This document shows, piece by piece, positions 30,571 through 64,000 of a DNA stretch of 64,000 nt. The stretch is taken from the NCBI GenBank assembly GCA_963971425.1, contig OZ020524.1:20885022-20949021 (forward strand). The letters are read 5' to 3'. A model generated the notes under the pieces. It searched no databases and was not told the DNA's origin. It worked only from the letters and a program-made list of their open reading frames with translations. Both the position numbers and the translations under genes were made by a program. This stretch comes from Bryoerythrophyllum caledonicum. Its lineage: Eukaryota > Streptophyta > Bryopsida > Pottiales > Pottiaceae. The first letter of the stretch is position 1. Every line of letters starts with the position of its first letter.

Positions 30571-31156
30571 GTATCTACAATGGCATTTCTTCAATGTATT
30601 ACATTCGCTTATGTTATTAAAAAACGATGTGACTCCAAAAGCCACCGCTCTGCATCTGAAATTGGCAGATATTTTTGTACAGCGCTTCCTCACCCATATC
30701 TAATCAAATCAATAGCAACAAATGTTCGAGAGCAAAAAAAGTACCTAGTAATTTATTATATACTAAACCGAATACTACTAGACGTAGTCCGAGAACTATA
30801 AGGGCATAGCATAAGATGTCATAAACCCTGTACTAGAAGTGAAAATCTTCTTTAATGTGAAATTTCATTGCAATTCTTCCCATCATTTGTACGTTCACTT
30901 TGAACTGGTCATCCGTCGCCAGTTTCAATGACTCCCACCGTACATGGAATTACATCCTTCTATGTCTTTTCCTAGGTTTTAGCAACCTCTTTTCACGGCA
31001 ATAGGAGCCACTTTTAAAACTAAATTTAGAAATTATATATTAATCCTTAATTTTTTCTAAAAAACTCCCTGTAAAAATTTATATTTTTTGGCTCTAGGCT
31101 CACGGCTCACGGCTCACCGCTCTAGGCACACAAAATAGCAATCCCCACCCTTTTGG

Positions 31157-42372: not shown

Positions 42373-45300
42373 TTATATTTGAAAATCGTAGCAAATATAA
42401 CAGAGGTAACGGCAAAAAAGATTTCATTAACAAATAAGCTAAAAGACGATGTTGAGCTCAATTGTAGTCGGATTTAGTATAACAAAACACAATTGAACTT
42501 GAATTTAGAAGTATAACAAAAGACAACTACTCCATGTCATCTGAACTATCCTCGCTATGAATTCCTTCGTGTGCCTCAACATCTAGGTATTTAGAAACAC
42601 CCTTGTGATAATTCCGGTGGTGATACCGAGGTCGTGGAGATCTTAGCTTGGACATCATTGTTGCCGCTGGTTCAACGTAAACTGAAAGAGTGAATGTAAG
42701 CGGTAGAGATGGCGGTAAGGGCCGCAACTTAAAAGGAATACAAGAAGTCTGCTCAACTCTGCAAAAGTAAGAGAAAATGAATGAAATGCCTAAACTTCAA
42801 ATAAAGCACATATTAATGTTGATTGAGAAAATAACATAATTAATTCGAAAACTTACTCACATAAAGGAATGCAGTTGCTCTTTTGTTTCTTCAGAGGCGC
42901 TTCCCCTGGCATACGTCGGACAACTTTTCTCTTTGGCAATATTGGGACGGTGGGTGACTTGGGAATGAGTGGTGCCAGGAGAGATTGAAAAATCGCCGAG
43001 TCTTCTTCAAAAGCCACTATGTGTCGACCAAGTGACTGACAAGCGCAAATGGCGGGTACTATAAAAAAGAAAGAAATGGCAAATGATGCTTTAGTCCTTC
43101 ATGAAGAAGAAAATAGTAAATGAAAGTTTAAATTTATGTGGAAGAAATGCTCACCGGTGGAGGCATTCCAATCAAGAACAATGTCCTCAATTGAAGTAAG
43201 CGATTCAATCATTGACTTTAAGAAATCATCAAATTTCTCTCAAGGGCCCCGCCAAGGTGATTCTCCACGCAAATGCTGAGTTGAAGCATTTATCGGATTG
43301 AATAATATGTCAAGCTTGAAGCTCCTCCAATGGAACGCTAACACGGAATCCCGAGACATCAATAGTATCTCGTACAAATAATTGGACACAAAAGCGCGTG
43401 CCCTGAAGCAAAGTATAATTATCTTTAGTGTAAATTTCCCGAAAATTCATGATATTGATACTGTATACATCAACAATAGCAAATAAATTTTATATAATCA
43501 AAAGATATAATTACCGTGGGAGAAGGATCCCGAGGTAAAGCAAGAGGGAGCTCGTTTAAAGCCCACCAATCGTTTAGTAACTTCAAATCGCATATTACTG
43601 CACATTCTTCAATCTCCAATTGCAAATCTTGGTCGTTGGCATGAAACAGAAGCAATGCTGCATTGTCATGGAGATAATTGTCAGCAAACTCAAATATTGT
43701 ATCAATGTACTCCTCCGGCCTAACATTCCACGCAGGAATGGCCGAATTAGGAACAGAGATCCCTAGAACGGGCAAATTCTCTGGAATGTCGGCAATTATA
43801 AGATCCAATCCAGAGTGCTTGTAAGTTTCACTTGAAACTTGCCGTGATCGATCTGCTCCAACCTGGAAAGCAATTGAGTTAAGAAATTAGAAATAATGTT
43901 TTACACTAATTTCAACAAACAAAAGTGATAAAAATAAATCATACCTTTGATATGAATTCATGAAGACGAGTCCAAGGCTGAGATGGACCACCGGGATGAG
44001 AAAGAGACTGCATGAGGGAAAATAGAGAGCAATTCATAATTAAGGACTTTGAAGAGACAATATGAATTGGTGCAACGGATGACTCTGATTGTTGAAATTG
44101 ACGTTGTTTGCGTTGGTGAACTTCCATGCGTGTAACTTCAATAAGATTGGATCCTGCAGCTTGAGAAGATGCCATGACCGGCGATGAATTCCAAGCAAAT
44201 TCATTATCTCTGGTCACATCTGTTTGGTTTGGTAGCACAGAGACATTGACAACTGCCCTTGCTGCAAGGGCAGTAGCTATAGCCTCCTCAATCTCAGCCT
44301 TCTTAGTTGCCTCCGCCTTCTGAGCCACTTGAATCTCCAACTTTGCCTTCTCAGCCTTGGTCAAGCGCTTCTTTTTGTTTGAAGTCTCGTCCTGGACAAC
44401 TATTGGCGGCAGACATGACTGCTCGTGTTCAAAATCCTCGCCCTCAAGATTAGTTGAAACATTGAGGGACGTAGAACCACAAAGACTACTGTAAAGCTCT
44501 AATTCCTCGTCTGGAATGAAGTTAGAGCTACATTCAAGGTACCATCCACCACCCTGTAGAAGTGGGATGGAGTACTTCTCCTGCTGAATATTTGTGAAAA
44601 TACATAGATCCAAAGAAGATTGAATCCATGGAGATAGGAAAGCAGGGCATGAGACAACTCCAAGCGCATTTTTAGGCATCAATTCCCTAATAATGTACCT
44701 AAATGAACAGAGTACAACGTGATAAGAAATGAGTGAATGAATTAGAAATGTTTAAAGAGGCACAAATTGAAGAAATTACATGAAAAATACCTGTAGAATA
44801 GACGTTTGATGAGAAGGTCACCTTCCAGTAAATCATCGAAGTTTGATCCCTTCAGAAATGGTGGCTTAACACTTGGATAGACAATATGCATGAATGCCTT
44901 CTCCCACAAAATTATACGCCATTTCTCAATATAGTTCGACGGACGCATAATCTCCGGAGAGGCGTTCCAGTCCAGAGTGAATGCGCCCGACTTACAAAGA
45001 TTCTCGAATTCAACTATGAAGCTATCTTCAAGCTGAATATTGTAAAAAATTATTAATAAACAATGAAAAATATGTGATCAGAAAATAACAACAAATGAAT
45101 AACTGAATCACATGTGCCCAAAATGATGCACGATTCAGGAATAAATCAAGTGTGGTGTCTTTGAAACGTGCACTTGGAAACCGATAGGAAGATCGAATAA
45201 AAGCTGGAGAATTCCACTAATGCAACCACCTTGCTTTGAAAAGTGGCCCAACATTAGAGGTTGTGACCTTCTGCAACCTCTCGATTGTCATTTCAATTGT

Positions 45301-46935
45301 TTTGAATTGATTGAAATGATTGTTGATCTACAAGAAGAAAATTCTAATGAATATGATGAAAAATAATCAACAAAAGAATTATCAAATTGTCTAAACAATC
45401 ATTGAAAAGAAAGTAAGATAATAAGGAAAAAAATACCTCTTCAAAAAATCCTTCGCCGTGCTTTGGATTTGCAACAGAAAGATATTTGTGAAAATCTTTG
45501 TTTTTTATGGATTTCACCATCGATGCTTCAGCAACATTCATAACTCTCCACACACCTACTGCCGTTCTCTCCTGTGCAGGCGTGGTTCTTTCGTATTCGA
45601 TGGCGGCTTCGTCAGCAACTCGAGCGAGGTCTTGCTGCAATAAACAATATTGTTTAAGACATATAAATTTGATATTTTCATATTGTTATTTATTCTTTGA
45701 ACAAAAATATAAATTCATAAGTGATACAAAAATTCAAAGTACATCTTGAGAAAGCACTTACCCGGTATAAGAAGGATATGAATACATCAATAGTCAAAGG
45801 ATACCAAGCTGCATGCGACTATCTAACTTTAACACAAGACTTGAATTCTGTGGAGGTCAGAAGTTCCTTGAAGTCTTCAAGCTTGAGGGACCCATAATAT
45901 TGAATGCGTTGCAACCTTGCAGGAAGCTTGACCTTTACATGGTTATTCTGAGTTGACCTGCATATTTACAATCAAATACGTCAATCCAAACTCAGAGATA
46001 ATAGAAGATAATTAATAATCAAGCTATCAATGGAAAATCAAATATGGCTGGATGGTAATACCAATTTACATCGTGCATACAATTAAGCAGAACCGAGATC
46101 TGCCCTTTTGGATTGAACACAACACTGGAAACCGAGTAATGCTAGGATTTGTCATTTGGGTGAACGTCATTAATATAGCGCCACCATGCATTATATCTGT
46201 GGTTTCCATCCCACACAAAAAACATTTTTCCTTTGAAATATGCATACTCTGGATTTGAACCCAAAAACTCCTCAAATTTCTCATTGGCAGATTGCCAATC
46301 AGAATTCCAGCTTTCCTTGATCTCCGGAGACACATCACGGGTTAACTCAGCATCGTCAAACAAAGAAATATAAAAAGAATGATCACCGTCAATGTATCCG
46401 CCTTCAAATTGCATTTCAAGGACGCATACATCAACCACCTGCACAGGACAAACATGTGGCAATGGAACCATCCTGCAAAAAGGTACGTAATGAGGGCCTT
46501 TGATGACGCGCATATTTTCAAGGACAGTCACAAAATTTGATTTCTGGTGAAGTCGTCGTGCCCTCTCTCCATCTTGAACATTGACCAAACCACTTGGGCA
46601 TTTTGGAGAATCATCTTCAGAATCAAATGAAGAAACGTCCTGTATTTTAAATTTACATATTAAAGTATTCAATAATTGATATCACGTGCGACAACATTAC
46701 TAAATGCAAAGAGTTGCTAATGCCACTAAATCTTGAAAAATAACTAATGTCTAAAACAAATGATTAACAAACCTGAATTTCTGGGTTGAGAGGGCCTTCT
46801 TTGGTGTCTTGAGTTGTGTTGACCTCTGAAGAAACTTCCGCATTAATCTGAAAAACAATGCACATACTTTTGAGAATGATAAGGCATATGATATACATTA
46901 TGTATATCATAAACTCTAAACCAATAACCATAAAT

Positions 46936-47214: not shown

Positions 47215-47455
47215 CCTTCGTCCACGAAGCCTTCTCACAACATTCAAATTTTCAAAAGCAACTATAGTTTGACAGCATCACAAGAGACTTTGTCCACGAA
47301 GCCTTATCACAACATTCAAATGTTCAAAATCAACTTTAGTTTGACAGCATCACAAAAGGCTTCGTCCACGAAGCCTTATCACAACATTCAAATGTTCAAA
47401 TGTTCAAAATCAACTTTAGTTTGACAGCATCACAAGAGACTTCGTCCACAAAGCT
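47215..47455. repeat. 72-bp tandem repeat with GGCTTCGTCCACGAAGCC hairpin
   Basis: There are about three copies of a 72-bp unit, each starting with a near-perfect palindrome (GGCTTCGT-CC-ACGAAGCC). Looser copies of the palindrome (TTCGTTGACGAA, TTCATTGACGAAGC) continue to about 47945 and recur at 61070-61230. All lie in introns of the copy 2 minus-strand gene. Confidence 0.8.
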
Positions 47456-48133
47456 TTCATTCATTAATTCACACTCCGAACAAGAATTCATATTTGGACA
47501 ATGAAACCACATTAAATCAAACAAAAACAAGCTTTTCAATCCATCACATGTTGAATTAAAGAGTTCAACCATACCATAGGTTGAGATGATCCCTTGATAA
47601 TGCCAATATCGCCAACATCTATGGTACCTACTCCTCTTGGTATGCTCTACCACATGCACACAACAATTTAGAATCCACGTTCGCAGAAGTTCTCAGCTCA
47701 CAAAGACATAACATCAAAAGTTGCAAATGTATAAATGAGGCTTCGTCAATGAAGTCTTATTAGACATGCATGACAGCTCATACCCATGTTCTAGCACAAA
47801 AACATCCTTCATTGACGAAGCTTCATGGCTCAAACTCTAGTGGTACTAGAAGAACATTCAGATGTACTCAAAGAACATGCTTCGTTGACGAATCATAACA
47901 ATTTGCCTCAACATGCTTCGTTGATGAACCATCGTACTCAAACTTGTTGTTGATTCATTCACAAAATTTTTAAACTTGTTGCTGATAAATTTTCATACTT
48001 GCTGTTGTTCGTTCATAAAATTCAGAGATCTTCATGTGTCGTACAAACATGATTTGTTATGACATCGTTCATAAAATCATTTTTTCATTATTTTTTAGAA
48101 CATCTCATTACTGCGATTTTATGAACGACGTCG

Positions 48134-48143
48134 TAGAAAAAAT
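48134..48143. repeat. Left target-site duplication of copy 3
   Basis: TAGAAAAAAT occurs directly left of the GGGGATTGC end and again at 60725-60734 directly right of the other end. The next base (G) is also shared, so 10 or 11 bp. The 9-11 bp length is typical of Mutator-like elements. Confidence 0.8.
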
Positions 48144-48210
48144 GGGGATTGCTATCTTGCGTGCGGTGAGCGGTGAGCGGTGAGCGGTGAGCTGTGAGCT
48201 GTGAGCGGTA
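48144..48210 (+). repeat. Left TIR and subterminal repeats of copy 3
   Basis: GGGGATTGCTATCTTGCG is followed by several GGTGAGC/GCTGTGA heptamer-like repeats. It pairs with 60640-60724. Confidence 0.85.
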
Positions 48211-48896
48211 AAAAAAAAGTAAATACGGAATAAGAAATTCAAAAAGTAAAAAAAAAAGTGAATTTTTTTACGAAGTAGACCTATATCCGTGAGAAAATAC
48301 AGTTTTTCTACTGAAAACTGAGGACCCATGGCCGAGGATAGTAGTGAAAGACTTTCAGGGTATCAACGAGTATCAACTGCAATCAGGGTATAAACGGGTA
48401 TGTAAAAGACACTACTATATCTAATTGCCTAGCACATGAGCTTAATTGTAGTTCAGTAATTGTGATAATTGTAGTGAAAAATTAATTAAGATGGAGAATG
48501 GATGTAAAAGAAAAAACAACTGCCGCATTTAAAAAGGAAGGAGAAAGGTACAGTAGAGACGATACACCATGCATGAGTCTCAAAATTGCACGGTCCTATG
48601 CATAAGAACTGCATGAACTATCCGGAGAAGACAATAATACTACGCGTTCCTCGACTGCCTCTAAGTCTAGGAAACCTTCAGCACGGATATCGGAAGAGGA
48701 GGAACTAGAAGCGGTTGAGAGAGACAAAACAGTAGCAAGAAGTACAGCCGCATCCTCCGCATAAGATGGCAGTAGAAAACTTCTATTTGGAGAGGTGGCC
48801 ACTGCAATCAAGCTGCAAACATAGAAGCAAAGGCACATCAGAGAATGAAGAAGATGTTCAAATCAATGAAGAATAACACCGAAATGACTTACTTAC

Positions 48897-51800
48897 TTAG
48901 TCTATTCCTCTTTGCGACCTTCGGATGGGAGCTTCGTCATCTAGAGAGTGCTGAACATTGGCACTGGGACCAGCGGTCGGTCGTGGAGTCTTAGGTGTGA
49001 ACAAGGGCCTCAACAACGTGTCAAAGATGGCTTTATCTCCTTCAAAGGCCACCAGATGCCGTCCGATGGAACGACAAGCGCGAATAGAATTTCCTGGAAT
49101 AAAACAGATGGTCAGAGCAAAAGAGGAAACTAAAATTGAACTTCAAAGTATTAAAAGCAACACCATACCAGTGGAAGCAAAGGCATCAACGATGACATCT
49201 TCCGGCTTGGTTAATCCTTGAAAAAGAATCAAGAAGAAGAGCACACTTCTTTCTCGCCCTCCACGCCAAGGAATAGACCCTCTCATGGATTGTGAATCCT
49301 TGTCAGTATGATTAACTATTACGTCCGTCTCTTCAAGGCTCCAATCCGTTGGAGGAAGCTCGAGATTCGAATTGAATTGAAACGTGTCCACTGGATTCGA
49401 GACCCGCACGAAGAGAAAAACTCTGAAACGCCGGGTCTGAGAAAACAAAAACAAATACAACGTGGAAGATAAAATTAACATACTGGATGAAAGAATGAAG
49501 GGACTGCGCAAATGACACGAACTGGAAGATAAAGACAAACCTTCATGGAAGAACTGATAGGCGAGGCCAGCGGCATCTCATTCATACCCCACCACTCTCG
49601 AAGAAGTTTGAAGTCGTAGCATGCAGCATATGATCGAACATCAGAGCGTACACTGATGTTCTCAGGAGAAACCACAAGCACGGATCCAGTGTCATGAAGA
49701 AAGGCGTCGCAGAATTCAAAGAAAGATTCAACCGACTTCTCACTATAGACATTCCAAGGAGGAATGTCATTTGTATCACGAGAGATTGAAGGCACGTAGA
49801 GCCCGTCTGGAAAGTCAGCAAACATTAAGTTAAAGCCACGATGAGCGCACGTGGTGCTTCGCGCCTCGTTTGCGGACCCACTCACAACCTATACACGCAG
49901 TGAAAGGAAGTTAGAACAATGTAAACAGATTTAGCGGAAACAGTTGGTAAAACAGCAAGGAAGTACTTATAGATTTTGACTCAAGATTTGAAAGACGCTC
50001 TCAATATACTGCTTGGTACAGCAATGCCGGTGACGGCAGTGGGCTCTAAGGAGTGCAGAAAAAATCGAGTGAAAACAAATATACTACCAAGACGAAGCAA
50101 AGTAAATACCTTTTGCATGAATTGGTTCAAGCGAGCAAAGGCGGGGTGATTCTTTCCGCCATTCATGACATCGTGGATTGAGAGATTCTCAATCCGGATT
50201 CCAACCGGAACTGTGGCAGATGTCGGTGAAATCGAATCTGGAATAGCCTTTCTCTTCAGCAAAGGGGCAGAGGGCTCGGAATGGAGAGAAGGCTGCATCG
50301 TGACATCCGGAGCTGGATCGTGAACTGGTGACGAGCTTGAAGGAGACTCCTCCTCAACGAGTACCATCGGTGCAGGCGCTTGGACCTCAATTACGTCAGC
50401 ATCGTCGAAGGGAGATTCAACGGCCTGCTTCCCCTTGCTCGCCTTCCTCCTCACTCTCGTCATTACAGCAGGCGTTGGGGGTCGGCTACCTCCACTCTCA
50501 ATACCCTTCAACTCAGGCTCAATTGAATTACGCAAATCAAGATCAAAAGAGGGAGGTCTCTTGATTGGGCAGTCCAGATACCACCCGCATCGCTCCCAGT
50601 GCGCTTGCCCCCACATAGCCTTGATCCCCTTCGACATCATGCAGTTTTGATTGTCCTTGTCCAAATAACCAGCAAGAATAGGAGGAGGACGAGCCATCGC
50701 CCTGCAAGGAATTAGAACATTCTTAATGTACCTATAGACCGTACGGCGAACAGCTTCAGCCAAACCGAATTGCCGTTTAGGTGCATAATTCTTGTGAACT
50801 CCCTTGGGCTCCTTGAACTCCCTGTAGAATGCAGTGTCCCAAAGTTGAATTCGATTCTCTTCAATATAATCATCAATCCTAGGAATTGCTGGACCGTTCA
50901 AAGGCTCGTAGTTAACTTCCACCGACAAATCCGATATCGCATCGCCAAACAGTTGACTTCCTTCAGAAGATAGCTGCAAAGATATAATCATTCACCGTAT
51001 CAGTATCTCATGAAGAAATAAACAATCTTCTCGCAACAAGTAAATACTCCAGTTCCAATACCTGCGCCCACCATGTAGCACGGTGAAGCCAGTCTGGAAA
51101 TTCACTGTCTGGAAAACGAATCTTCGGAAATCGCAGTGCCTCGCGGAGGGGGCCATCCCGATTCCAGCGCTCGAGCCACTTAACCTTCATTTCAGCCTCC
51201 ATAGCTGACGTTGCAATCATGTGGAGCTTCTCCTGGGTCATCTCCGAATCCTCGTCGTGAGACTCGTAATGTTTCTTCACCTCTTCCAGAAAGCGGGGAG
51301 TGTGCTTCGGATCCGCCGTGGGAAGCTGCTTCCGCAGCTCAGAACTGCAATGCAGTTTTGTTCTCTTAACAGCCTTGGAAACGAAATCAAGGGCATTCGA
51401 TGAGGTCCAATCAGCAGGATTTGGAAAACGCTCCGAAACCTTTACTTGAGCCTGTGCTGCAGCATCTCCAATCTCTTGCTGCAACCACAGCGCAAGTGCA
51501 TTGATAAGAATTATTCTAAACAAAACTCGGTGGTACTAGATCATTAAGGAGTATGCAGTGCACATAACCAAAATCTGGATCATGACCATATGAGAAAAGG
51601 CTGTACCTGGTAAAGAATGGAGCACAACGATGGCTCAGAGAGAGTATACCAGGTACGTTTCGCAGACTTCTGTTTACTATCAGCTGCTTCAAGTTCCTTC
51701 TGGGATACAAGGTTCTCGAAAAACTTTAAAGGTTGAGAACCGATACCCTGAACACGATAAAGTTTATGGACAAGGTTTGTAGTCACATGCGATTTCTGAT

Positions 51801-54800
51801 TCCTCCTGTGGACATAAAATATGATGTCAATACAGGAAACACTACAAAAAATATATGCTTGAATAGCTGTTTATTTAAAATAGGCTTACCAATTGACCTG
51901 ATGAAGTGCAGTCAGTAGGGTCGCTACATTTCCTTGAACGTCGAGTAGTACTGACTCAACTGCTACATGCCATAGTGGGTCATCGGAATGATCTCGGTCG
52001 ATAATTGGTCGCCATGCCTGCAACCGGTGGTTGCCATCCCAAACATGAAACATTCTTCCGGAAAGAAAGCGAAGGTCTTCATCAGCCTGAAGGACGTTCT
52101 CAAATGCAGCATTCGCCTCAGCCCAACCACTGTTCCAGGTAGAAGTAATCTCCTCAGTGACATCAACAGTATTTCCTACATCATTCTGAAGCGCAACGTA
52201 GAATACTCCAGCTCCCTCCATGTACCCATTCTTCACAAAGTGCGAGGCCAACGACATGACATCGTTTCTAAGAAATGGCCTGACAATCGGAAGGGCAATC
52301 ATCCTACAGAGGGGGATTTGGAGCCGAGATTTCGACCGCGGCTGAAAGCGAAGCTTGTCAAGGAGAGCATTGGTATTGACCGATTCCCTGACAACGAGGT
52401 CATTCATCTGCTTGCCAAGGTCAGCCATAGATTCTGGGGACGTCTTATCGGCTTCGTCCTCATCTTCTTGCTGATCAATATCTGCAGTGAAGGTCACACA
52501 CTCAAAACAAGCAACTCACAAACCATGAAAATAGAATAATTATAATGATGAAACATACCATCCGGTTGAGTCAACCGATCCTCTTCATCTGATGCGTCTT
52601 CATGATGACCACTGTTGCGTTCACAGTTCTCCATATCTGCGTCTGCAAACTCAATTAACAACAATGAATTTCAACGAATATTGACATAACAAATAAAGGA
52701 CAGACATCGACCTCATGTAGACAGCAGTGCCGTTGCCGGCAGTGGAACTGCGAGGCATTTCTCAACAGAGTGACCGGCTTCAGAGTGATGACGGCAGCGA
52801 CATAAATAATTAGAGAAAAACCAATCCTGGAGCAATGCCGTTGACGGCAATGCCCAAGATTGTGCTCGATTAGAATTGCAGCACCAAGAACTTCATTGGC
52901 ACTGCCGTCAACGGGAGGGCTTCGGTGATGGAAAGAAAAAAAAATGAACTGACCACTTCACGAGCACTGCCGTTGCCGGCAGTGCTCCAATGAAGTCTGA
53001 TCTAAAAAATGTCAACCATATCTCGAGCACTGCCATTGCCGGCAGTGCTCCAATGAAGCCTGATCTAAAAAAATGTCAACCATATCACGAGCACAGCCGT
53101 TGCCGGCAGTGCTCGTGGAGTGGTCTGAATTACTATTTCAGTTTGCTGAATCGAAGCACTGCCGTTGCCGGCAGTGCTCATGAATTGCTTGGTGAGAATT
53201 GCGACACCTGGCACTTCATGAGCACTTTCGGCTACGGCAGTGCTTCGATTCAGCAAACTGAAATAGAAATTCAGACCACTCCACGAGCACTGCCGGCAAC
53301 GGCAGTGCTTTGAACAAAGCAGGTAATCATAAATAGCAAATCAGATCACAAGCATTGCCGCTGCCGGCAGTGCTATTGTAGTGCTAGGTGAGATTTCTGA
53401 CACCAGCCACTTCATGCACAGAGCCGGCAAAGGCAGTGCTGCGAAAGTGGAAAGTAAAGAGAATATTGACCACTCCAAGAGCACTGCCGGCAACGCCATT
53501 GCTCTCATTAGAGCAAGTATAAAAAAAAACAAATTATTTCTTGAGCTCTGCCGTTGCCGGCGCTTCGAATGAGGAAAGATTAAAATATAATGACCCCTGT
53601 ACAAGTACTGCCGGCAACGGCAATGCATGAAACAAAGCAAGTTTTAAAAATTATCAAATCATTTGGTTAGCACTGCCGTTGCCGGCAGTGCTCTTGATGT
53701 GCTCGGTGTGATTTGTGAAACCCGGCACTTCATGAGCACTGCCGGCAACGGCAGTGCTTCGAAGGAGGAAAGATTGAAATAAAATGACCCCCGTAATAGT
53801 ACTGCCGGCAACGGCATGCTTGAAACAGAGCAAGTTTAAAAAGACAACAAATCATTTCTTGAGCACTACCGTTGCCGGCATAGCTCATGAACTGCTCGGT
53901 GTAATTTGTGACACCGGGCACTTTATGAGCCCTGCAGGCAACGGCAGTGCTTCAAAGGAGGATAGATTAAAATAAAATGACCCCTGAACAAGTACTGCCG
54001 GCAACCGCATTCCATGAAACAAAGCAAGTTCTTTCTGTCAGCAAATCATCCCGTCAGCACAGCCATTGCCGGCAAAGCTCATGAACTGCTCGGTGAAATT
54101 TGTGACACAGGGCACTTCATGAGCTTTGCCGGCAACGGCTGTGCATTCAACAGACCAAGTTTTTAAAATAGAAAATCATTTCAAGAGCATTGCCGTTGCC
54201 GGCACTGCTCATAAAGTGCTCGGTTAAAATTGTGACACCGGGAACTTCATGGACACGGCCGGCAACGGCAGTGCTTCGTAGAAAGAAAGATGAAAAAATA
54301 TACCGACCACTCCTTGAGCACTGCCGGCAACGGCAGTGCTTTAAACAGTTCAAGTGATAAATTATCGCAGATCAGATCACGAGCACTGCCGCAGCCGGCA
54401 GTGCTCATGTAGTGGTCGATGAGATTTGTGACAACGGGCACTTCCATGGCACTGCCGGCAGCGGCAGTGCATCGAAAAAGCAAAGTTTAAAAAAAGACCA
54501 ACAACTCCGACTGCATTGCCGTTGCCGGCAATGCATCGTACAGAGCAATTTCTAAAAAAAAGCAATCCACTTCACGAGCACTGCCGTTGCCGGCATTGCT
54601 TCGAAGAAGGCCAGTACTTAGATATGCGGTGATGAGGTCGGTGTCATCACAGACACCGGCTATCTTGGGTAGCACTGCCGCCAACGGCAGCGCGGCATGG
54701 ACGCCCGTGACACCACCATCACGATCCTACAGCTTAGATTTTTCGAGATTGAAAAACCCTAACCTAGACGTACTTTTCATATTCACCAATGTGTATTGGA

Positions 54801-55658
54801 CTTACCTTCCGCGCTGCAATCTGTTGTAGCGTTGCTCATCGATATCGCCATGTCCTCAATGTCCCTTTCCTCGCACTTGTCTTGCCCTGCACACAGACAC
54901 GCACAACTGTTTAGAATCGGATTTGTAGATTGTCTTCTCTGCATTGTAATATCAGTCTAACTCGCAATCTGACCCTGACATCGGAGAAATCTACGCAGAC
55001 AACAAGGATCATAATACCCTCGCACAGCTCGATGGACCTTCGACGCAAAGACCAGCGAGAAATACGATTGATGTGTGTTAACCTAGAAGTGGCCGCCTGT
55101 GGGTTTAGTGCGCATACCCTCGCGAAGCAATGTCGAAATTCCTCCGTGAGGGGGGAACTGATCACTACCTATACCATCCGCTGTACACTCAGCCTTTCAT
55201 AGCCAACCTAAACCTAGGTGCTAATTGAGTGCAAGAAAGAGTGAAATTGACAATACAACTTATCACTCCATCGACATTGCTTTTAGGCACGAATGATACT
55301 AATTCTCTATAGACCATGATAATTGAAGTAATGATTCACCCAACAAAGAACTAGATAATGACTTCTAAGAAATACCTGAATCGGGGTCCTGCGCTGCAAT
55401 TCCATCCAAATGAATTCCACTGGTTTCCAGATGTTTAATCTCTGCAAATAGACGGCTTTCAGGAATTGATATCAAACACTCCTTACTGGCGAAAGTCTCT
55501 TCTGCATCTAAAGCGCAATCCTCTTGAAACTGCAGTGTTTTTTGAGTCATTCCACAATCCCCCTCAATCAGTTTTGATACCTTCCTCCTCATCTCTCTAG
55601 TTCTTCTCAAAGTTCTAATGGAACTGAAGTAGAGTTGTGACTTTCTTCTTTTTTTCAT
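48897..55658 (-). CDS. ParB-like + permuted DNA amino-methyltransferase-like protein (copy 3)
   Basis: Ten exons with agreeing phases and no stop: 55658-55376, 54886-54806, 52642-52559, 52481-51890, 51805-51607, 51478-51062, 50973-50110, 49888-49541, 49436-49169, 49093-48897; 1,110 aa. The N-terminus is basic (MKKRRKSQLYFSS). ParB-like region about 205-345: PLCRMIALPIVRPFLRND, then GYMEGAGVFYVAL, with DGNHR at about 298-302. The methyltransferase-like region starts with a motif IV position FNLMFADFPDG (about 859-869) and ends with motif I, VIVDAFASTG (1037-1046), then GRHLVAFEGD (1056-1065). This IV-before-I order is that of beta/gamma-type DNA N4/N6 methyltransferases. The usual DPPY is ADFPD here, so activity is uncertain. 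A Ser/Pro-rich linker lies at about 660-790. A possible extra C-terminal exon (about 48823-48599) is not included. It diverges from the transposase gene. Confidence 0.8.
52720..54695. repeat. Hairpin array, about 30 units at about 64-65-bp spacing, in intron 2 of the ParB/methyltransferase gene
   Basis: A hairpin of the form GCACTGCCG - TTGC or GCAA - CGGCAGTGC recurs about 30 times. Sampled positions are 52965, 53026, 53090, 53154, 53220, 53286, 53351, 53416, 53479, 53545, 53605, 53670, 53733, 53798, 53862, 53928, 53992, 54056, 54120, 54184, 54252, 54317, 54381, 54448, 54514 and 54576. The roughly 42-bp intervals are not unique: they fall into a few diverged classes (for example ones with GCTCGGTG..TTTGTGACACCGGGCAC, and ones with GAGGAAAGATTAAAAT). 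Loop orientation varies along the array. The intron is 2,163 bp and the array fills most of it. Confidence 0.9.
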
Positions 55659-56260
55659 TCTTCACCACATTCACTCGGTTTGATCCCGACCTCTATGTTT
55701 CCAGTATATATGCACGCTCCATTTAATTTCTCTTCCTTATTACCTGCCCTGGAGTGGCATTTAGTTCTGTGGCTGCTGCTATATTTAATGGCCAGCCCTG
55801 GTCCAAGCATGATCAATTTATCGACTCAGACAAACTATTCTAGGCCGTCAATTTACTAACAGATAACAGGTAAATTCCTTAAAGTAAGCCGCCATATATA
55901 TATCTTTGTGCAGATTCGCTGCCAACAGAATATCTTTCTTGATCATGATTTTGATTGAACGAAATCTAAACCACCCTAATTCTTAAGAATATTGGACATA
56001 CTGTCTTAGTTGATACTTACTTTTCCGCCCATGCCTGCACATTAACGACAAGTAATAAATAGTGCTGTCAACTTGCTTTTCTCTCTCATAAAGTGAAGAG
56101 ATCTTTATTGCCCTCATTTTTACTTTCCCGGATAAATTAAATTTCATCTATATATGTGCTAACTTTGTTCTTTACGTTAACCTCTCAAATCACGATAACT
56201 TAGCGCATGTTGTTGAGTTTTGCCTCCCCTCTCCCTTTATTGATTTCTTAATGCTCTGCA
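55659..56260. promoter_or_regulatory. Bidirectional promoter region of copy 3
   Basis: This 602-bp gap lies between divergent start codons. TATATAT at 55705-55711 is about 50 bp upstream of the minus-strand start, and TATATATG at 56149-56156 is about 105 bp upstream of the transposase ATG. The corresponding gaps in copies 1 and 2 are of similar size. Confidence 0.55.
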
Positions 56261-59200
56261 ATGGTTTCTTTGGGTCAGTTCCCCGATACTGTAGTTGTTC
56301 ATGGAGACTCCACAGGAGTCCCTATATGTTTTGCTGTTGCAGATGACGGATTGGCCATGATTAGTGGAGTTAGATTAAGTCAGCGATTTCGAATTCAGGA
56401 GGGGTCACTTCATATTGACAAGGAAGAGTTTGATCCAGATACTGGAGAGCTCACGCACACTGTCGCTCAGGCAACTATTTCCCTTGATCACGGAAGTGTA
56501 TGGTCGCTTAAGTCTGGAAGGTATCGAGTGTACGGTGTGAAGGACAGTCTTGAGAGAGTCCCTTGTAGTTCCTTGACCCCAAAGCAATCGACGACCGCAA
56601 CCCAAGTTACACCGTTGCTTCAGAATGTTAAACTAGAGCCTCCTAAGAGCGTAGTGCACTTGCTTAGTGATGACTCTGATTGTGATTCTCCAAAAGTTCC
56701 GGCTTCCAGGACGCCTGTGGACGGTTCATCATTCCTTTGTAATACTGCACCTGCCCTGTCCAATGCTGCTGCTCCTAGTAATTCTGGGCCTCCCCTTACC
56801 CCCTCAGCCCCTATTAGCATTGTGGACTGCTTGCGAAGTGTGACTACTAGGTCCCGATCCAAATCACTCTTAAGCAAAGTCGACTTTAATTCTATTAGAA
56901 TTGAGAAGGTTGACTATTTGCCTGTCTCTTTCGATGGAGACGTTATATACGAACTTCCAGTTCTAGAAAGGGGATCTCAATCAACGCAGGCCGGATTGTT
57001 GCATGGTATGGATAAAAAACACGATGGACATGCGTGGACAAGGACAGTGACAACTCATGTTGCAAATGACTCAAACCTTACGTTTAGGATGTCTTCGTGT
57101 CTGGGACATCTTCGGTGCGATAATCCAAACTGTGACTTCCTAAAGAGAGAGCATAGGGCTTCCCTTTTAAATGAAACCGAGTGGGAGGGAACTTCGTCCT
57201 CAGTGTTTCGAGTGAGTGAGGACCCTCCAGCAAGTTCGACTGTTGTTTGCAGACTATGTAGAGTTCCTCCGTCTTGTCATAGTACTTGCGCAGCCAAAAT
57301 TTACTATGTTATCGGACCGGAGAGTATGACTAGGGGATGTGTGCATCTTGGTAACCACTTGCACCCCGTTAAGTTAGGGAACTGTAGAGTTTCCTCCACA
57401 AAGCTTAAGCAACTTATCGGGGAACAAGTGGAGAGGACACCCTCAGCTACTAACTCAGCCATCATTCTTGAGGCCAGCAAGGAATTCCTTGGAGAACAGT
57501 TACTGGGCCCGGACGGGGTTCAGCAGAAGCCCCTTCATATGGAGGAACTAGTTCCGGTGTTAGAAAAGTTCGAACAGATGTCATCGGCGAGCATTCGAAA
57601 TGACGTCTCTTCATTCAGGTACCTGCGTAGGTTTGGTGTCATGGACAGCATCACGAAACTCAGAGGTTTGAGCAAATGGGCCTTCGTTCAAGAAAATAGG
57701 TTTCCAGGTCAGGGGGCGGACTCTGACAAGGTGTTCGTATTCAAAATGTCCGAGATTGGTCCTGCTAGCGGGGTTGATTTGGTGAAACGAATGCAGCGAG
57801 GAGGAGACTTAGAAGAATGTTGGATCATGTTTGATCATGTGAAGCGAGTGAAGGGTTGGACAACTATGGGTTGCCATGTTTACGATTCTACGTACTGTCG
57901 AGTGCTGACCATTGCGGTTTGCGATATGCAGTCTGAAGATGTGGCAGCGCAAACAGTTTTTTGGAAAAATTTGAATGCAGTTGCTTTTCGTCACGATATT
58001 ACCACTGTAAACTTCAAGGGATTCATGGCAGACAGCGCGCAGGCAAATTGGAACGCGGTGCGGACTGTTTATGGCTCCGGCGATTCCGCTATCCCGATGG
58101 AAAATCGCGAAAGAACCTGCCTTTTCCATTGGACACAATCACTGGAGAAACATACAAAGGCGGATATAAGAGCAGACCTCCAAGAACAACATCGTCAACT
58201 TTGCAAATAGTACAAGAACGCAAAGTCCATGGAGGAGGCCGAGGCAAAGTATTTGGCGATCAAAGCTTGGTGGCTATCATCTGGGGCATCCACAAATGAG
58301 GGTGTGGTGCGGCTGGACTTGTGGCTTGCGTTCTGGCACTTTCGGTACCGTCAGTGGGGAGGTTTTATGGTATCGGTACGTAACTTTTCTAGACCGTATT
58401 TTGTTTGGTTTTCTGGCTGGCGTACCTTAGAACACACCTCATTTTGTAGTTGTGATCCATAATAAGTCTGCCGTTGCCGGCAGACCTAGATAGTGGGTCC
58501 TCCTTGTCGCTTTTATATTTGGTTATGATTCAGCCGTTCGTGGCACAATCATCAAACATCGTTTTATTTCTGTGAATCTTTTAAAATCATTATCCTATTT
58601 GAACCTTCCTCTTTTTTCAGGCGTTGTCCGATTCCGAATTAGCAGAAATGCCTTCTTGCAATTTAGCTGAAACTGTGCACAACAAGTGGTTGCAACAGTC
58701 TGGGAAACGTGGAAATGATTTGTATGTGGCCACTGTTGATGACATGGTTCGCGCTTTCTTGCAAGTCGTGTCATGTTATCAATACTTGAAAGGTGAGCGA
58801 CCAGGAATGGGTCCTGGGAAAGAAGAACTTCGCCTTCGAGTCGCTCAACGCACAGCTCATCGCTCCGGAAACTCTAAGGCATTTCTTGAAGCGCTCTCCG
58901 ATTTGCCAGGAGCTGCTGAGTTCTGCACGAGGCCCCCGCATTTGGAAGGCGAAGAGGAGTTCTTATCTCTGAAACGAAAGGCAGATATTCCTCCAGGTTC
59001 AGAGTTTGACTCCCATCGTCCGGACAGAATTAGTGTATCCCGCCCTAGGGTGAGGACCCGTGCGTCAGAGAAGAATACTCTCTATGTTGCGGATGAGGAT
59101 ATTGACTTTCCAGGCGGTTCCCAGAAGGATGTAAGTGTTCCTCCGAAGATGGCAAGAGCATCTTTTCGAGTTCCTCATGTTAAAGCAGTCATGGAAACAT

Positions 59201-60066
59201 CTTGTGACGAAAGGGAATGGCATATTTCAAGGCTTCCGAAAACATCAGCAAAGAAATGTTTTGCTCTTCAGTCTCTTACTGGGAAGAAGTGTGTCGCTCG
59301 CATTGTCCAGGACAATAAAAGTACTGCAGCACCAACATACACAGGAATGATGAAAAATTATAAGAAGAAAACGTTGGTCAAGATGCAGTTTTTTTATTGT
59401 TCTGATGACATCCATCGTTGTGTATTGGGAAGTAGAAGGGAGTGGGTGGTTTCTAAGCCTGCAGTACCTGATGTGTGGCCCGTAAAAGCTGGTACCTCTC
59501 TAACAAAGGCAGAGATTCTATCCTTAGAGGAGGCCGGTTTCCGACTTCCAGAGCGAGTGATGCTTTCCCCTCGGAAACTGTTTACTGAGGATGGTTCAAC
59601 ACTTGATTTGTCTTCATTTTCCACCCCGGCAAACCCTGACGAACATCCAAAGCTCAGATTTGGCAAGAACATTCGTCGCAATCCGAAGGCCCCGACAACG
59701 AAACATCAGAATACGTGCGCATCCGCTCTTTCAATTGTTGGGAAAGTTTTGCAGGTTTGTATGATTCCTGCCCCAGCGTTTGGATGCGTTCTCTCCTTCC
59801 AATCAAAAAACATTTCACAAGTATCTGTCTACATGATATCAATCAGCCAGTTTCCAAGTTGTAGCTGTCCGTTCTTCAAGGAAATGTGCAACAAGTCCCT
59901 TGGCAAGCGCCCTCAGTATTCGAACTGTAAACATCTGTACTTTATATTTACCATACTATGTGGGTTGGATCCGGAATTGGATGCATTTATGCACGCCCCT
60001 AGTTTTAGCTTCAATGAGATAAGACGTGTTTTGCAGCTATTGCTCATGAAGCAAGCTAGTGTTTAG
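56261..60066 (+). CDS. MULE-like DDE transposase with SWIM motif, copy 3 (one in-frame stop)
   Basis: Two exons, 56261-58375 and 58621-60066, in phase, 1,186 codons. Codon 650 is TAG where copy 1 has Gln; otherwise open. Layout: an N-terminal 100-residue domain; a linker with VKLE (123-126) and VVHLLSDDSD (131-140); a Cys/His cluster (about 280-367: HLRCDNPNCDF, CRLCRVPPSCHSTC, RGCVHLGNHLH) resembling WRKY/FLYWCH-type DNA-binding folds; then the DDE core with HVYDSTYCRVLTIAVCDM (D542 likely), KGFMADSAQANW (D591) and the C-x2-H motif CLFHW (620-624). The SWIM pattern CxC-x19-CxH is at 1119-1143. Known role of the family: cut-and-paste transposition. The third acidic residue is not assigned. 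Confidence 0.8.
58376..58620 (+). other. Transposase intron with a single hairpin
   Basis: This is the GT-AG intron of the copy 3 transposase. It contains GTCTGCCGTTGCCGGCAGAC (about 58467-58486), the same hairpin core as the array in the other gene's intron. The matching copy 1 intron (29024-29118) lacks it. Confidence 0.7.
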
Positions 60067-60639
60067 TGAAGCATTGGACTAGGTGGACATTGTACGTATT
60101 TCTATCAGTACAAAAGGATGGTGAGACTACAGGGCCACCATCATGATATGAAAAGACCACTTTAGTCAACATTTCGTACTCTGCATCGTTTTTAGTCAAT
60201 TTGTCTTTATTTCATATTGTCTTCAACCTTACTATCATATATTGCATACTTTGTACAGTTTTCGTTTTTGGTATTTTTTTTTTTTTGGAGCTTTGGCCCA
60301 AGACTTATCATACTAGCAACATCTCCACATGCTGGGACGTGGATGATTTTTTTTCACCACTTCATCCAACTGTAACCCTCTTGAATATTGGTATGCACAC
60401 CATGATCCAGGTAGTTTAGGTTCCTCTCACACCGTGCTTAGTACTAATTTTCACCAGCATTCTTAATTTACACGGTAATAGGTGTTTGATTACAAACCTT
60501 GTTTCCTTTGCTCTGCATTCGCATCCACGGTCATAGGTGCCTTTCTATGCACTATTTTTACCCTATACCGCATTTTGCAACATAAAAAAAACCCTACTTT
60601 TTGAAAAAAAGTTAAACTTTACTCAAAAATTTTGCTCAC
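60067..60639. other. 3' flank of the copy 3 transposase
   Basis: No gene is supported. It holds the 3' UTR of the transposase and leads into the right terminal repeats. Confidence 0.4.
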
Positions 60640-60724
60640 TGCTCACCGATTGCTGCTCATTGCTCACTGCTCACGTGTCAACGCTCACCGCTCACATGCC
60701 ACCGCACGCAAGATAGCTTCGTCC
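60640..60724 (-). repeat. Right TIR and subterminal repeats of copy 3
   Basis: GCTCACTGCTCACCG-type repeats are followed by CCACCGCACGCAAGATAGC and TTCGTCC. The target duplication TAGAAAAAAT follows at 60725. Confidence 0.85.
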
Positions 60725-61069
60725 TAGAAAAAATGATTTATGTTAAACATGATTTTTTATGACGAGAATGGTGCAGTGATGTGCTACAAATCATTAGATG
60801 CCAAACCCGCGTGTTGAGTTTGAACTGAAATTTGGTCTTCACTTGGCTCAAGTCATCTCAGAATCTGGTAAAAAAAAGTGCACAAATGCTTACCTTGTTG
60901 CTTGAGAAGGAGTCAGTGGTTGCCGCTAAAGGAGATGAGCACGCCATATCGTCCAATCCAGCAACAATTCCTCCACTAAATGTGACCTGCCACACCAACA
61001 CAACAAATTAGATTCAAAGAAAACAATAAAAAAATTTCACTCACTAAAAAGGTTTTGTTAGATCACGAA

Positions 61070-61230
61070 GCCAAAGCTTGATGATCAGAAAGCCTAAGGT
61101 TCGTGATCCACGAAGTTAAGTCACACGAAGCCAAAGTTCTGGACCGTTAAGGACGTAAGTTCGTGGAGTTCTCGATGCGCAAAGAAGAGGGTGAGTAACA
61201 AGCTTCATCGACGAAGCCTTAGTTGACAGC
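61070..61230. repeat. Scattered CTTCG..CGAAG hairpin repeats in a copy 2 intron
   Basis: Repeated GATCACGAAGCCAAAG / CACGAAGCCAAAG blocks and GCTTCATCGACGAAGCC occur here. They match the palindromes at 47215-47945, on the other side of the copy 3 insertion. Confidence 0.55.
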
Positions 61231-62253
61231 ACGAACTAGTTGTCACTTCTGAAGATAGTATGTGCCCTCAGGCTAAAAATAGCTTTGACACCTCATCATG
61301 TGCGTCCACGTTGAGGATGTGGACCCATTCTTCCCAAATAGGTGCAAAGTCAGCGCGCAACTTAAGCGCGTATCTGGAGATACTACCAAAACAAGGCATC
61401 CTGGAGATGTCTAAATCCTAGCATCCTGGAGATGCTGCCGCAGATCCTGTAAATGCTGCCGCAATTGGTGGCACGTTCATGAGTTCATGTGGGCATGATC
61501 ATGTGCGCGCACAGCTGTGAGGTTCTATATCTAGAACCACCACCGCCACCAACGACCAACGCCATCATATATCAACCAGCCACTCGAACAAGACAACCAT
61601 CTGACCCCTCGCCACCACATGCCATCCCCGAATTCTTCTCGCGACACTAAACCACCCCCCGGTTGTTACAAGACTTTCCGCTTCGTGATCAGTTATGCAC
61701 CAGGATCAGCATGTCTAACTTCAATAAAGCTTCCAAGTCAATATCCAATCTATCCAGTCCTAACTTCGACGTCTAGTTCCGAGTTAATACCTAGCTGCAA
61801 ACGTCCACTCCAGTCCTAACTTCAACGTCCAGTTCTGCACTTATCCACATGTATGTGGTGGACACTGCTCATAAACCGTGCATGGTGACCCATGCTCATG
61901 CACAGCTTCCATTCGCTTCCTTCCCATCAATTCCTTTTCGCCAGTACACTAAACACTGAATATAGTATAGAGGGATTATTGATGTAGATCACCCACACTA
62001 ATTTCCATCAAAGCATGTGCATGCCAAGTTCCGATTGGGTATTTGTTCTCAAGCAAGTGTGTGTCAGTCAACAAATACAGCAATTTCCCTTCAAAAATTT
62101 CACTAAAATTTACCCCCCCGGGTAGACGTCGAGACGTTAAGAAAAACTTTACCAAAACTAGTGGTGAACCCGATTGACACCTCATAGGTTTGTGTTACAT
62201 TGGATAGACAACTTGGGATTGCGGGGGACATTATCTATGTCTTCGTACCGGAT
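61231..62253. other. Intron DNA of the copy 2 gene, nothing further recognised
   Basis: Between exons at 60986 and 62620 of the copy 2 minus-strand gene. It contains short direct repeats (CATCCTGGAGATG and AATGCTGCCGCA at about 61400-61460). No gene is supported. Confidence 0.4.
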
Positions 62254-62331
62254 CCTGTGGGCATGGTCTTAGTAGTGGAACGAACAGACACTTTATTCAC
62301 ACCGGTCCCCTTCGGGAACCGGCGTTCTTCT
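62254..62331 (+). mobile_element. 78-bp retroposon-like insert with 14-bp target duplication
   Basis: TCTTCGTACCGGAT occurs directly before (62240-62253) and after (62332-62345) the insert. The body begins CCTGTGGGCATGGTCTTAGT, with an AGTAGTGG stretch resembling a pol III box A, then a CACCGGTCCCCTTCGGGAACCGG hairpin-type block and a CTT-rich end. A related copy lies at 22157. tRNA-derived SINE or retroposed small RNA are both possible; I do not recognise the parent. Confidence 0.6.
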
Positions 62332-63156
62332 TCTTCGTACCGGATATCATTACCAAGGTGATGGAAATTGAGGTCCGAGTATTATATTAGTGGAGTTGGT
62401 TTTTAAACAATTCTCATTAAGTGTATTGACTAAAATTGACGAGGATGATGGATTTTGAAGTATGCTATCATAGCTTTCTTCAAAATTGCATCAGTCCTAC
62501 ATGACAACAAGAATATAAATGCAATATGAAATACCACTACAGGTTATTATAATCTCAGGACATGTAGACAAAACTCCACGACGTAGACTAAACTCATAAT
62601 GGTATAGTTCAAAGCATACTTTCTGGTTTGGAATCACAGTCTCCACCGCTTCTGGAGTTAATTGTGCCTTCGCTAGTGATGGGGTTGATTCCTCAATATC
62701 CTCCGTAATTGCATCAGTTCCTCCTCTTTCCTTGCCCTTCTACACACACATTAGTATCAAAAATTAGATGAAAGTATAGGAACAATGAAGATGAAGTTAG
62801 CTAGGTCAGCATATCATTGTTACATAAACTCTTGCAAAGACATTCAGAAATTGACGTAAACATAACTATAAACTACTTTAACTAAAAAGTCTTACAATTG
62901 AATCTCCTTCATTGTCAAGAACAAGGTGTTGTTCTCCATCTCTATCACGTTGTCTTAGATAATATGACAACACCCTTGTAGTATCAGAAATGTCAGTGTC
63001 AGAAATATTTGCCTTTCTCCTTCCCATCCTTGCCCTCTGCAATTGCTTACAACTTGAAAACAAGATGCCTTGCCTCGTACGCTTCTTCTTCCTCTCACTT
63101 TCTATAACTAGACAATCCGTCGTAGTTTCCTCATTCCAACCTAATGACAATTCCAT

Positions 63157-63830
63157 AAACCCAGGCGTACAAATAAATTTGAAAACCTCTCTTTTAAGGT
63201 TGTGCAGACAACTTTGAAAGATGCTTCTTAATTGAATTTAGAAGTTTCCAACTCATTATTGCTATATTAATTTGTATACAACTTGGCAGAAATATGATAG
63301 CTTCCTCTCTGTCAACCGCCGCCATTCACTTCAATAATTATTCACATTTTATTTATAACTTACATATTTATGAGTTGTTTGTCACTAATTGTTATTTTGG
63401 ATTCATTGTCGTCATTCTAATGCCTGATAATAACCAGTCACTTTAATTCATGAACATGATGGATTGCCAACCTTTCAATCTTATTCCAATCATACAGTGC
63501 AGTCAGAGTGCAATTATACACCGTGAATTGTGCCTTCGTCTATTCTTTAAAAGTTTCTCTAATTGCATCTATCCGCTGTCATTCACTTTCAAGAATAGGA
63601 CATGCAAAAATACGGAATCTCAACGTTTTCTTTTTCATGTATGGCTATTATGTTAAAGGAATTTTATTCTTGGATTACTCCCAAAATTTACTTCTAGTAA
63701 ATAATTTACATTTGTCCCTGTTAGAAGTTTTTGTTTGTGCAAGTACTTAATCTTTTGTGCCTCTGCTAAACTCCCTCTTTTGTATCGGTTTCATTTTGTC
63801 TTTGTGAGGTTGCAATTTACTTAGACTACA
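63157..63830. promoter_or_regulatory. Bidirectional promoter region of copy 2
   Basis: This gap lies between the minus-strand gene start (63156) and the transposase start (63831), 674 bp. It keeps the divergent layout of copies 1 and 3. Frames in this gap have no recognisable motif. Confidence 0.4.
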
Positions 63831-64000
63831 GTGGCCTTCATTCGTGCTGATTTGCATTCTGTGCCAGTTACATTTCCATTGGGTGAAGATGGTCATGCCA
63901 TGGTCACTTCCACGACTCTAGGTCTGAGGTTTCAATTTTGTGAAGAGTCTGTCTTTGTGGAAGAAGTGGTTTTTGACATTACAACGGGACAAGTCTCGCA
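63831..64000 (+). pseudogene. MULE-like transposase of copy 2, N-terminal end only
   Basis: The frame from 63831 reads VAFIRADLHSVPVTFPLGED, then GHAMVTSTTTLGLRFQF and VVFDITTGQVS. It aligns with the first 65 residues of the copy 3 transposase (VPICFAVADDGLAM, RLSQRFRI, EEFDPDTGELTH). The position of the start codon is GTG, where copies 1 and 3 have ATG. The gene continues beyond the window. Confidence 0.65.

What the first reader, a model, noticed from the sequence alone, without database searches (positions are those of the whole stretch)
48144..60724. A MULE-like plant transposon that carries a ParB-like/DNA methyltransferase-like gene head-to-head with its transposase
Copy 3 has TIRs, a 10-bp target duplication, a DDE/SWIM transposase and a divergent 10-exon gene that is open over 1,110 codons. 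Its product joins a ParB-like domain (DGNHR) to a permuted DNA amino-methyltransferase fold ending in VIVDAFASTG...GRHLVAFEGD. The same gene pair, in the same divergent layout, is present in two other diverged copies here, so it is element cargo and not a chance neighbour. I do not recall a described plant DNA transposon with this cargo. A possible role is marking or binding element DNA (self-methylation, anti-silencing, or end recognition); this is inference.
Basis: partly seen in the sequence, partly recalled or inferred. Interest (0 to 1): 0.92.

Follow-up and report, generated by a model that had tools for sequence, protein, structure and literature searches.

The report
Plant transposon with disarmed methylase gene
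A plant jumping gene carries, back to back with its own transposase, a second gene whose protein looks like a bacterial-virus DNA methylase that seems to have lost its catalytic motif, and an intron of that gene holds an array of DNA palindromes that could be the protein's binding sites.

Summary
The element is real: 48144-60724 has inverted ends, a perfect 10-bp target duplication, a SWIM/DDE-like transposase and a divergent 10-exon gene (g2) open for 1,110 codons. It apparently lies inside an intron of an older copy's g2. The head-to-head pair recurs in both diverged copies (g2 60% identical over 110 aa in copy 1, 31% overall in copy 2), so g2 is element cargo.

The g2 C-terminus is homologous to beta-class N6/N4 DNA methyltransferases (hhalign P 7.8e-6), but the position aligned to motif IV (DPPY) reads DFPD/DIPE, so catalysis is doubtful. 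ParB rests on a GxxR box and domain order; profile tests were inconclusive and structure prediction failed.

Precedent exists: a 2025 Ectocarpus paper reports a 1,104-aa ParB-methyltransferase gene opposite a Sola1 transposase and cites green and red algal cases. New here: a MULE-like plant element, the degenerate motif, and 25 palindromes (mostly ~65 bp apart) in g2 intron 2, with unrelated palindromes in the other copies.

I favour a VANC-like self-recognition/anti-silencing factor over self-methylation; binding is inferred.

The parts
48134..48143 (.). left target-site duplication TAGAAAAAAT
   Evidence: identical to 60725-60734
60725..60734 (.). right target-site duplication TAGAAAAAAT
48144..48206 (+). 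left terminal inverted repeat with GTGAGCN heptamer run
   Evidence: 56-nt arms 84% complementary (I10); outer end set by the TSD
60662..60724 (-). right terminal inverted repeat
48897..55658 (-). g2: 10-exon ParB-like / degenerate methyltransferase gene, 1,110 aa (exons 55658-55376, 54886-54806, 52642-52559, 52481-51890, 51805-51607, 51478-51062, 50973-50110, 49888-49541, 49436-49169, 49093-48897)
   Evidence: GT..AG at all nine introns, open frame
51890..52481 (-). g2 exon 4: ParB-like region with DGNHR
   Evidence: motif; conserved in copy 2, N-terminal part in copy 1; profile tests inconclusive
48897..49888 (-). g2 exons 8-10: methyltransferase-like domain; ADFPDG at the position aligned to motif IV, DAFASTG at motif I
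52643..54805 (.). g2 intron 2: array of 25 near-palindromic 22-bp sites, mostly ~65 bp apart
50021..50042 (.). single copy of the palindrome in g2 intron 7
58466..58485 (.). single related palindrome in the transposase intron
56261..58375 (+). transposase exon 1, one in-frame stop at 58208-58210; exon end read by eye
58621..60066 (+). transposase exon 2: catalytic-E-like motif (SCNLAETVHNKW) and SWIM-like CxCx19CxH; exon start read by eye
   Evidence: PF04434 E 0.21 only
26954..30558 (+). copy 1 transposase, 61-64% aa identity, many stops
24121..26343 (-). copy 1 g2, exons 1-4, truncated; exons 2 and 3 by eye
31126..31146 (-). copy 1 right terminal repeat
42880..46657 (-). copy 2 g2, exons 4-10 equivalents, four in-frame stops
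60735..63100 (-). copy 2 g2, 5' exons, separated from the rest by copy 3
   Evidence: exon 1 hit 62962-63093; other exons by eye
63813..63998 (+). copy 2 transposase start, runs off the window
   Evidence: (34% aa, E 0.036)
47215..47930 (.). copy 2 intron-2 palindromes GCTTCGTNNACGAAGC, 8 sites
24727..24806 (.). copy 1 intron-2 palindromes, 2 sites

Best explanation
A cut-and-paste, MULE-like plant transposon carries a second gene descended from a prokaryote/phage-type ParB-methyltransferase fusion. Shown: element boundaries, the gene pair, its conservation in three diverged copies, methyltransferase homology of the C-terminal half-domain, and palindromic DNA in g2 intron 2 (strong in copy 3, a few sites in copy 1, mixed in copy 2). 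Less firmly shown: a non-canonical motif IV position in both alignable copies and the ParB-like domain. Inferred: the protein no longer methylates but binds its own element through the ParB-like and methylase-like parts, at the intronic palindromes, and so marks the element for de-silencing or for its transposase. It would thus work like the VANC proteins of VANDAL MULEs, with protein and target repeats changing together between element families.
For: TIR/TSD. Pair in three copies. Copy 1 versus 3: transposase pN 0.234 and 0.225 with pS 0.853 and 0.826 for its two exons; g2 exon 4 (110 codons) pN 0.274, pS 0.887, so both genes were kept by selection. Methyltransferase, copy 3: PDB 5hfj/5hek E 0.0025, NCBIfam CcrM 0.0072, PF01555 0.014 below cut-off, PHROG 0.014. 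hhalign of copies 2+3 against 81 phage/viral ParB-MTase fusions P 7.8e-6, versus 0.16 and 0.26 for the two one-side-reversed controls. Motif IV position ADFPDG / ADIPEN in copies 3 and 2. Palindromes: 17 in copy 3 intron 2 versus shuffle mean 1.17 (0 of 200 reach it); copy 1 intron 2, 2 versus 0.10 (0 of 200); 9 of 10 GCTTCGTNNACGAAGC matches lie in copy 2. VANC targets are tandem repeats in noncoding DNA that differ between related elements (PMC5735166, PMC10398659, passages).
Against: No binding or expression data. ParB profile tests inconclusive or negative. In the Pfam and NCBIfam scans only copy 3 matched a methyltransferase, copy 2 did not (1 of 2 members each); copy 2 scores just 2.4 bits against the viral profile. 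The N-terminal half of the methyltransferase region alone is marginal (P 0.031; 2 of 60 column shuffles score as high), so the motif IV register is not certain. Copy 2 intron 2 is not enriched by the general palindrome count (1 versus 0.42; 76 of 200 shuffles reach it), and part of its array is one 72-bp tandem repeat. The best-scoring single palindrome of the regions compared lies outside the elements, in 1-19000 (score 13). The array's strong RNA hairpin offers another function.
Confidence: 0.5

Rival explanations
1. g2 is an active N6-adenine or N4-cytosine methylase that self-marks the element, as proposed for the algal proteins.
For: Methyltransferase homology; the Ectocarpus authors predict N4mC or 6mA for their protein (PMC12477816, passage).
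Against: The motif IV position is D-F-P-D and D-I-P-E in two copies only 31% identical overall, and motif I is FASTG / NASTx rather than FxGxG. The register of motif IV is of low confidence, so this is not conclusive.
Confidence: 0.17
2. g2 is a transposition cofactor that binds element ends or holds the transposase-DNA complex, comparable to mudrB or mutB; the intron array is unrelated.
For: Second ORFs with such roles are known in MULEs (PMC6446971, passages); a basic N-terminus is kept in all three copies.
Against: Nothing direct. The intron palindrome was not found at the TIRs, which would be expected only if both served one protein.
Confidence: 0.2
3. The intron-2 array acts as RNA: its transcript folds into long hairpins that feed or decoy the host's small-RNA pathway.
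For: 53085-53315 on the g2 strand: -191 kcal/mol against a shuffle mean of -71.2, z -26.5, 0 of 200 shuffles (the only segment folded).
Against: The conserved unit is a 22-bp site with more variable flanks at near-constant spacing (with ascertainment bias), which fits protein binding at least as well; no small-RNA data.
Confidence: 0.1

Closest known systems
ParB-methyltransferase accessory gene of Ectocarpus Sola1-1_Ec32 (PMC12477816, passages; green and red algal cases cited there, not read)
   Same: Protein of about 1,100 aa (1,104 versus 1,110) described as ParB-like plus N4/N6 methyltransferase, transcribed opposite to the transposase in a DNA transposon.
   Different: Sola1 element in a brown alga versus a MULE-like element with 10-bp TSD in a plant; ours has a non-canonical motif IV position and intronic palindromes. 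Whether theirs shares these was not seen; direct sequence comparison was not possible.
VANC anti-silencing system of VANDAL MULEs (PMC5735166, PMC10398659, passages)
   Same: MULE with an extra protein; repeat arrays in noncoding element DNA that differ between related elements.
   Different: VANC homology not tested; palindromic 22-bp sites in an intron rather than 8-9-bp motifs; anti-silencing untested here.
Phage/prophage ParB-N6_N4 methyltransferase fusions (e.g. Streptococcus phage EJ-1 ORF37)
   Same: Order: ParB-like, linker, motif IV, motif I at the C-terminus.
   Different: About 400 aa, encoded by one uninterrupted frame, DPPY intact in the four read in full.
DNMT-carrying retrotransposons of dinoflagellates and charophytes (PMC5890265, listing and start of abstract only)
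   Same: Transposon carrying a DNA methyltransferase-type gene.
   Different: C5-cytosine enzymes in retrotransposons.

Membership tests
MULE (Mutator-like elements) | target duplication of 8-11 bp (PMC6446971, passage) | tested here: met
   10 bp, identical
MULE (Mutator-like elements) | terminal inverted repeats (most groups) | tested here: met
   a matching right end on copy 1
MULE (Mutator-like elements) | DDE transposase recognisable as MULE | tested here: inconclusive
   motif order read by eye: D (MFDHV), D (FMADSA) 66 aa on, CxxH, E (SCNLAET); no transposase profile hit in Pfam; AF2 pLDDT 42.1, best fold match E 1.2 and meaningless
MULE (Mutator-like elements) | SWIM zinc finger (many groups) | tested here: inconclusive
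   CxCx19CxH conserved in copies 1 and 3; PF04434 E 0.21, below cut-off, for exon 2 alone and not listed for the whole protein
KDZ / Zisupton | 8-bp target duplication (recalled) | tested here: not met
   10 bp; no KDZ profile hit
Sola1 | 4-bp target duplication (recalled) | tested here: not met
   10 bp
Beta-class N6/N4 DNA methyltransferase (PF01555) | homology over the SAM-binding half with motif I | tested here: met
   hhalign C-half Prob 94, P 1.3e-7; (below Pfam cut-off)
Beta-class N6/N4 DNA methyltransferase (PF01555) | catalytic motif IV (D/N/S)PP(Y/F/W) (recalled) | tested here: not met
   ADFPDG and ADIPEN at the aligned position; register of low confidence
ParB/Srx fold | Box II GxxR (PMC12704722, passage) | tested here: met
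   DGNHR in copies 2 and 3
ParB/Srx fold | profile or fold similarity to ParB | tested here: inconclusive
   no Pfam ParB hit (DUF1015 E 0.16 in 1 of 3 members); no hmmsearch match; hhalign 0 of 60 shuffles above real for one ParB set, 22 of 60 for the other; AF2 failed
Transposon ParB-MTase accessory proteins of algae | sequence homology to those proteins | not testable with these tools
   their sequences are not in any collection offered
VANC | VANC protein homology | not tested
   no VANC sequence at hand; analogy only
VANC | tandem target motifs in noncoding element DNA | tested here: inconclusive
   arrays found, binding not shown

The most novel reading that the evidence does not exclude
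A phage-type ParB-methylase was captured by a plant MULE, lost its catalytic motif and became a sequence-specific self-recognition factor. Its parS-like palindromic sites lie in its own gene's second intron, and site and protein have diverged together in each element lineage: an anti-silencing or self-marking system like VANC, evolved independently from different parts.
Probability: 0.22. Interest if true: 0.85.

Novelty: new variant of a known kind. Interest (0 to 1): 0.6.

Why it matters
ParB-methylase cargo is reported in a brown algal Sola1 element, with green and red algal cases cited (PMC12477816). A MULE-like plant element with cargo of the same description suggests repeated or very old recruitment across unrelated transposases. 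A conserved version with a non-canonical catalytic motif and copy-specific palindromes makes a direct test possible: is this protein a DNA-binding self-recognition factor rather than a methylase?

Tried and rejected
Structure prediction of g2 exon 4 (3 rows) and of the transposase core (2 rows) gave pLDDT 35.6 and 42.1; the one fold search made, on the transposase core, has no match below E 1.2. Relatives of g2 or its exon 4 in viral contigs and prokaryotic genomes, and of the transposase in viral contigs: 0 confirmed; these scans start from a few short peptide patterns. The best-covered phage tblastn row (L004) has no methylase domain, and 0 viral contigs held a relative of it. No ParB was found in three phage records, which gave no usable set. 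Left end of copy 1 not found. Rfam: 0 matches at gathering scores. PDB search with a host exon: 0. Catalytic chemistry from D-x-P-D/E was considered and thought unlikely from general knowledge of the DPPY motif (recalled).

Dropped rows: 3 of the 80 viral loci were lost because an ORF with DPPY and DxFxGxG was demanded, so the count 81 of 81 with DPPY is circular for 77 of them; rows with under 60 letters in the ParB part were also left out there, number not printed. Of 591 confirmed viral relatives 80 were kept by the tool. In some searches the phage ZS04 protein was left out of the fusion profile (it is cut by the fetched stretch and shows no DPPY). Reversed-versus-reversed hhalign rows score high as they must and are no control. 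The g2 exon 1 row used a wrong frame and is not used.
Full report
The element. The TIR core occurs without mismatch only at 48151-48166 and, inverted, at 60702-60717; the arms are 84% complementary over 56 nt. Outside them lie identical 10-bp sequences TAGAAAAAAT. The ends continue inward as GTGAGCN heptamers. Copy 1 has a matching right end at 31126-31146, and an orphan left end sits at 35444, 79% identical to the copy 3 left end over 85 bp.

Nesting. Copy 2's g2 occupies 42880-46657, its first exon hits 62962-63093 and a transposase start hits 63813-63998. The last two hits are weak in the window search (E 0.044, 0.036), but pairwise against copies 1 and 3 each scores above all 1000 shuffles. 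An exon-like stretch at about 60985-60894 resembles g2 exon 2 of copy 3 (by eye). The copy 2 exon model is by homology and by eye.

The gene pair. g2 in copy 3 has ten exons, all nine introns GT..AG, 1,110 aa. Copy 1 keeps exons 1-4 and is cut at 24121; copy 2 has four in-frame stops. Copy 3's own transposase has one stop, 58208-58210, in a stretch conserved in copy 1. Between copies 1 and 3 synonymous differences are saturated (pS 0.83-0.89) while pN is 0.22-0.27 for both transposase exons and for 110 codons of g2 exon 4. For copies 2 and 3, exon 4 has pN 0.467, pS 0.755 and exon 8 dN/dS 0.47. Both genes look to have been under purifying selection.

Transposase class. Motifs fit a MULE: D..D (66 aa apart), CxxH, E, then CxCx19CxH (read by eye), with a 10-bp duplication within the 8-11 bp of MULEs (PMC6446971, passages). 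No Pfam transposase profile matched, and SWIM reached only E 0.21 for exon 2 alone. I call it MULE-like. KDZ/Zisupton also has a SWIM finger, but its duplication is 8 bp (both recalled).

Methyltransferase. Four libraries point to the same C-terminal stretch of copy 3: PHROGs, PDB 5hfj/5hek, deposited as an adenine-specific DNA methyltransferase, PF01555 below cut-off and NCBIfam CcrM. Copy 2 matched none in the Pfam and NCBIfam scans. Of 40 phage tblastn rows listed (113 records matched), 31 are annotated as methylases, best E 0.003; the 8 best-covered rows are hypothetical proteins and the one checked has no methylase domain. Against a viral profile copy 3 scores 9.7 and copy 2 2.4 bits on the same profile stretch, each above its 500 shuffles. 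hhalign of both copies against 81 phage/viral fusions gives P 7.8e-6, C-half alone 1.3e-7, N-half alone 0.031 with 2 of 60 shuffles as high. In both the whole-domain and the N-half alignment ADFPDG falls on TDPPYNV. Copy 2 has ADIPEN. Loss of the aromatic residue and one proline in both copies suggests an old loss of the canonical active site; METTL14 is a known analogue of a disarmed methylase partner (recalled).

ParB. DGNHR carries the GxxR of Box II (PMC12704722, passages), and the order ParB, methylase is that of phage fusions. Four such fusions were read in full here, all with DPPY, and a fifth (ZS04) is cut off by the fetched stretch and shows no DPPY. The same paper lists PF01555 among domains more frequent in phage ParB fusions. 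But Pfam gave no ParB hit, phage tblastn only noise, hmmsearch none, and hhalign was 0 of 60 or 22 of 60 shuffles above the real score depending on the ParB set. I treat ParB as likely but unproven.

The palindromes. GCACTGCCGNNGCCGGCAGTGC with up to 3 mismatches has 40 strand-wise matches at 26 sites, all in copy 3: 25 in g2 intron 2 and one in intron 7; none of the 26 falls in an exon. Of the 24 steps between the 25 intron-2 sites, 18 are 63-67 bp, 4 are near a multiple (124-194) and 2 are 94 and 108 bp; orientations are mixed, and the site is more conserved than its flanks (sites were chosen by the motif, which inflates this). A general palindrome count gives 17 in copy 3 intron 2 against a shuffle mean of 1.17, and 2 against 0.10 in copy 1 intron 2 (0 of 200 shuffles each). 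Copy 2 intron 2 is not enriched by that count (1 against 0.42; 76 of 200). Controls: copy 3 intron 1 and its other g2 introns 0; copy 3 transposase intron 1 (13 of 200 reach it); other copy 2 introns 2 (27 of 200); copy 1 intron 1 2 (5 of 200); 1-19000 10 (3 of 20 reach it) but with the best single palindrome of all regions compared, score 13; 30600-42500 5 (6 of 20). GCTTCGTNNACGAAGC has 8 of its 10 window matches in copy 2 intron 2 and one more in a neighbouring copy 2 intron; 0 of 100 shuffles of the window reach 10. The three palindromes look unrelated in sequence. A minisatellite at 22715-22938 also contains a palindrome. The one array segment folded as RNA folds extremely well, so an RNA role is a live rival.

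What is known. VANC proteins of VANDAL MULEs bind short motifs in noncoding tandem repeats that differ between related elements (PMC5735166, PMC10398659, passages). [quoted passage not shown] of its two sources one is not held and one was not looked up. Bacterial ParB-methylase fusions are described in PMC5512222 (passages). Searches for a MULE or land-plant case: 0 papers; 8 of 8 listed; 15 of 911 listed; 13 of 13; 10 of 16; 2 of 2; 8 of 693; 12 of 51. No listed title or abstract start showed one, and the MULE survey PMC6446971 has no word beginning with 'ParB' or 'methyl'. Four of these lists were capped and most subscription journals are not held, so absence from print is not shown.

Host. 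The species is unknown.

Verdict. It is a new variant of a known kind; the apparently disarmed methylase and the copy-specific palindromes are the parts worth testing.

Noticed in passing
15843-18267 (-): Exons resembling a ribose-phosphate pyrophosphokinase gene (PF13793 E 0.00021, below cut-off, in 1 of 3 pieces tested); useful for naming the host.
   Followed up: partly
31397-31933 (-): Fragment of a CACTA-type transposase (Transposase_21, E 3e-13).
   Followed up: no
35444-35526: Orphan left end of a related element (79% to the copy 3 left end); may be the left end of copy 2, with later insertions between.
   Followed up: partly
37168-39201 (-): 678-aa open frame without a significant Pfam match, similar over 1 kb (75%) to an inverted stretch at 34072-35087; perhaps a retroelement gag.
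   Followed up: no
19495-19881 and 41651-42039: Dispersed repeat pair, 79% identical, same orientation, near the truncated sides of copies 1 and 2.
   Followed up: no
53085-53315: Intron segment whose transcript would form a near-perfect long hairpin (z -26.5).
   Followed up: partly
39817-40415: 183-bp tandem repeat, 3.3 copies, next to other short tandem repeats.
   Followed up: no
42528-42750 (-) and 48596-48862 (-): Open stretches just downstream of the g2 stop in copies 2 and 3, possibly an extra 3' exon or UTR.
   Followed up: no
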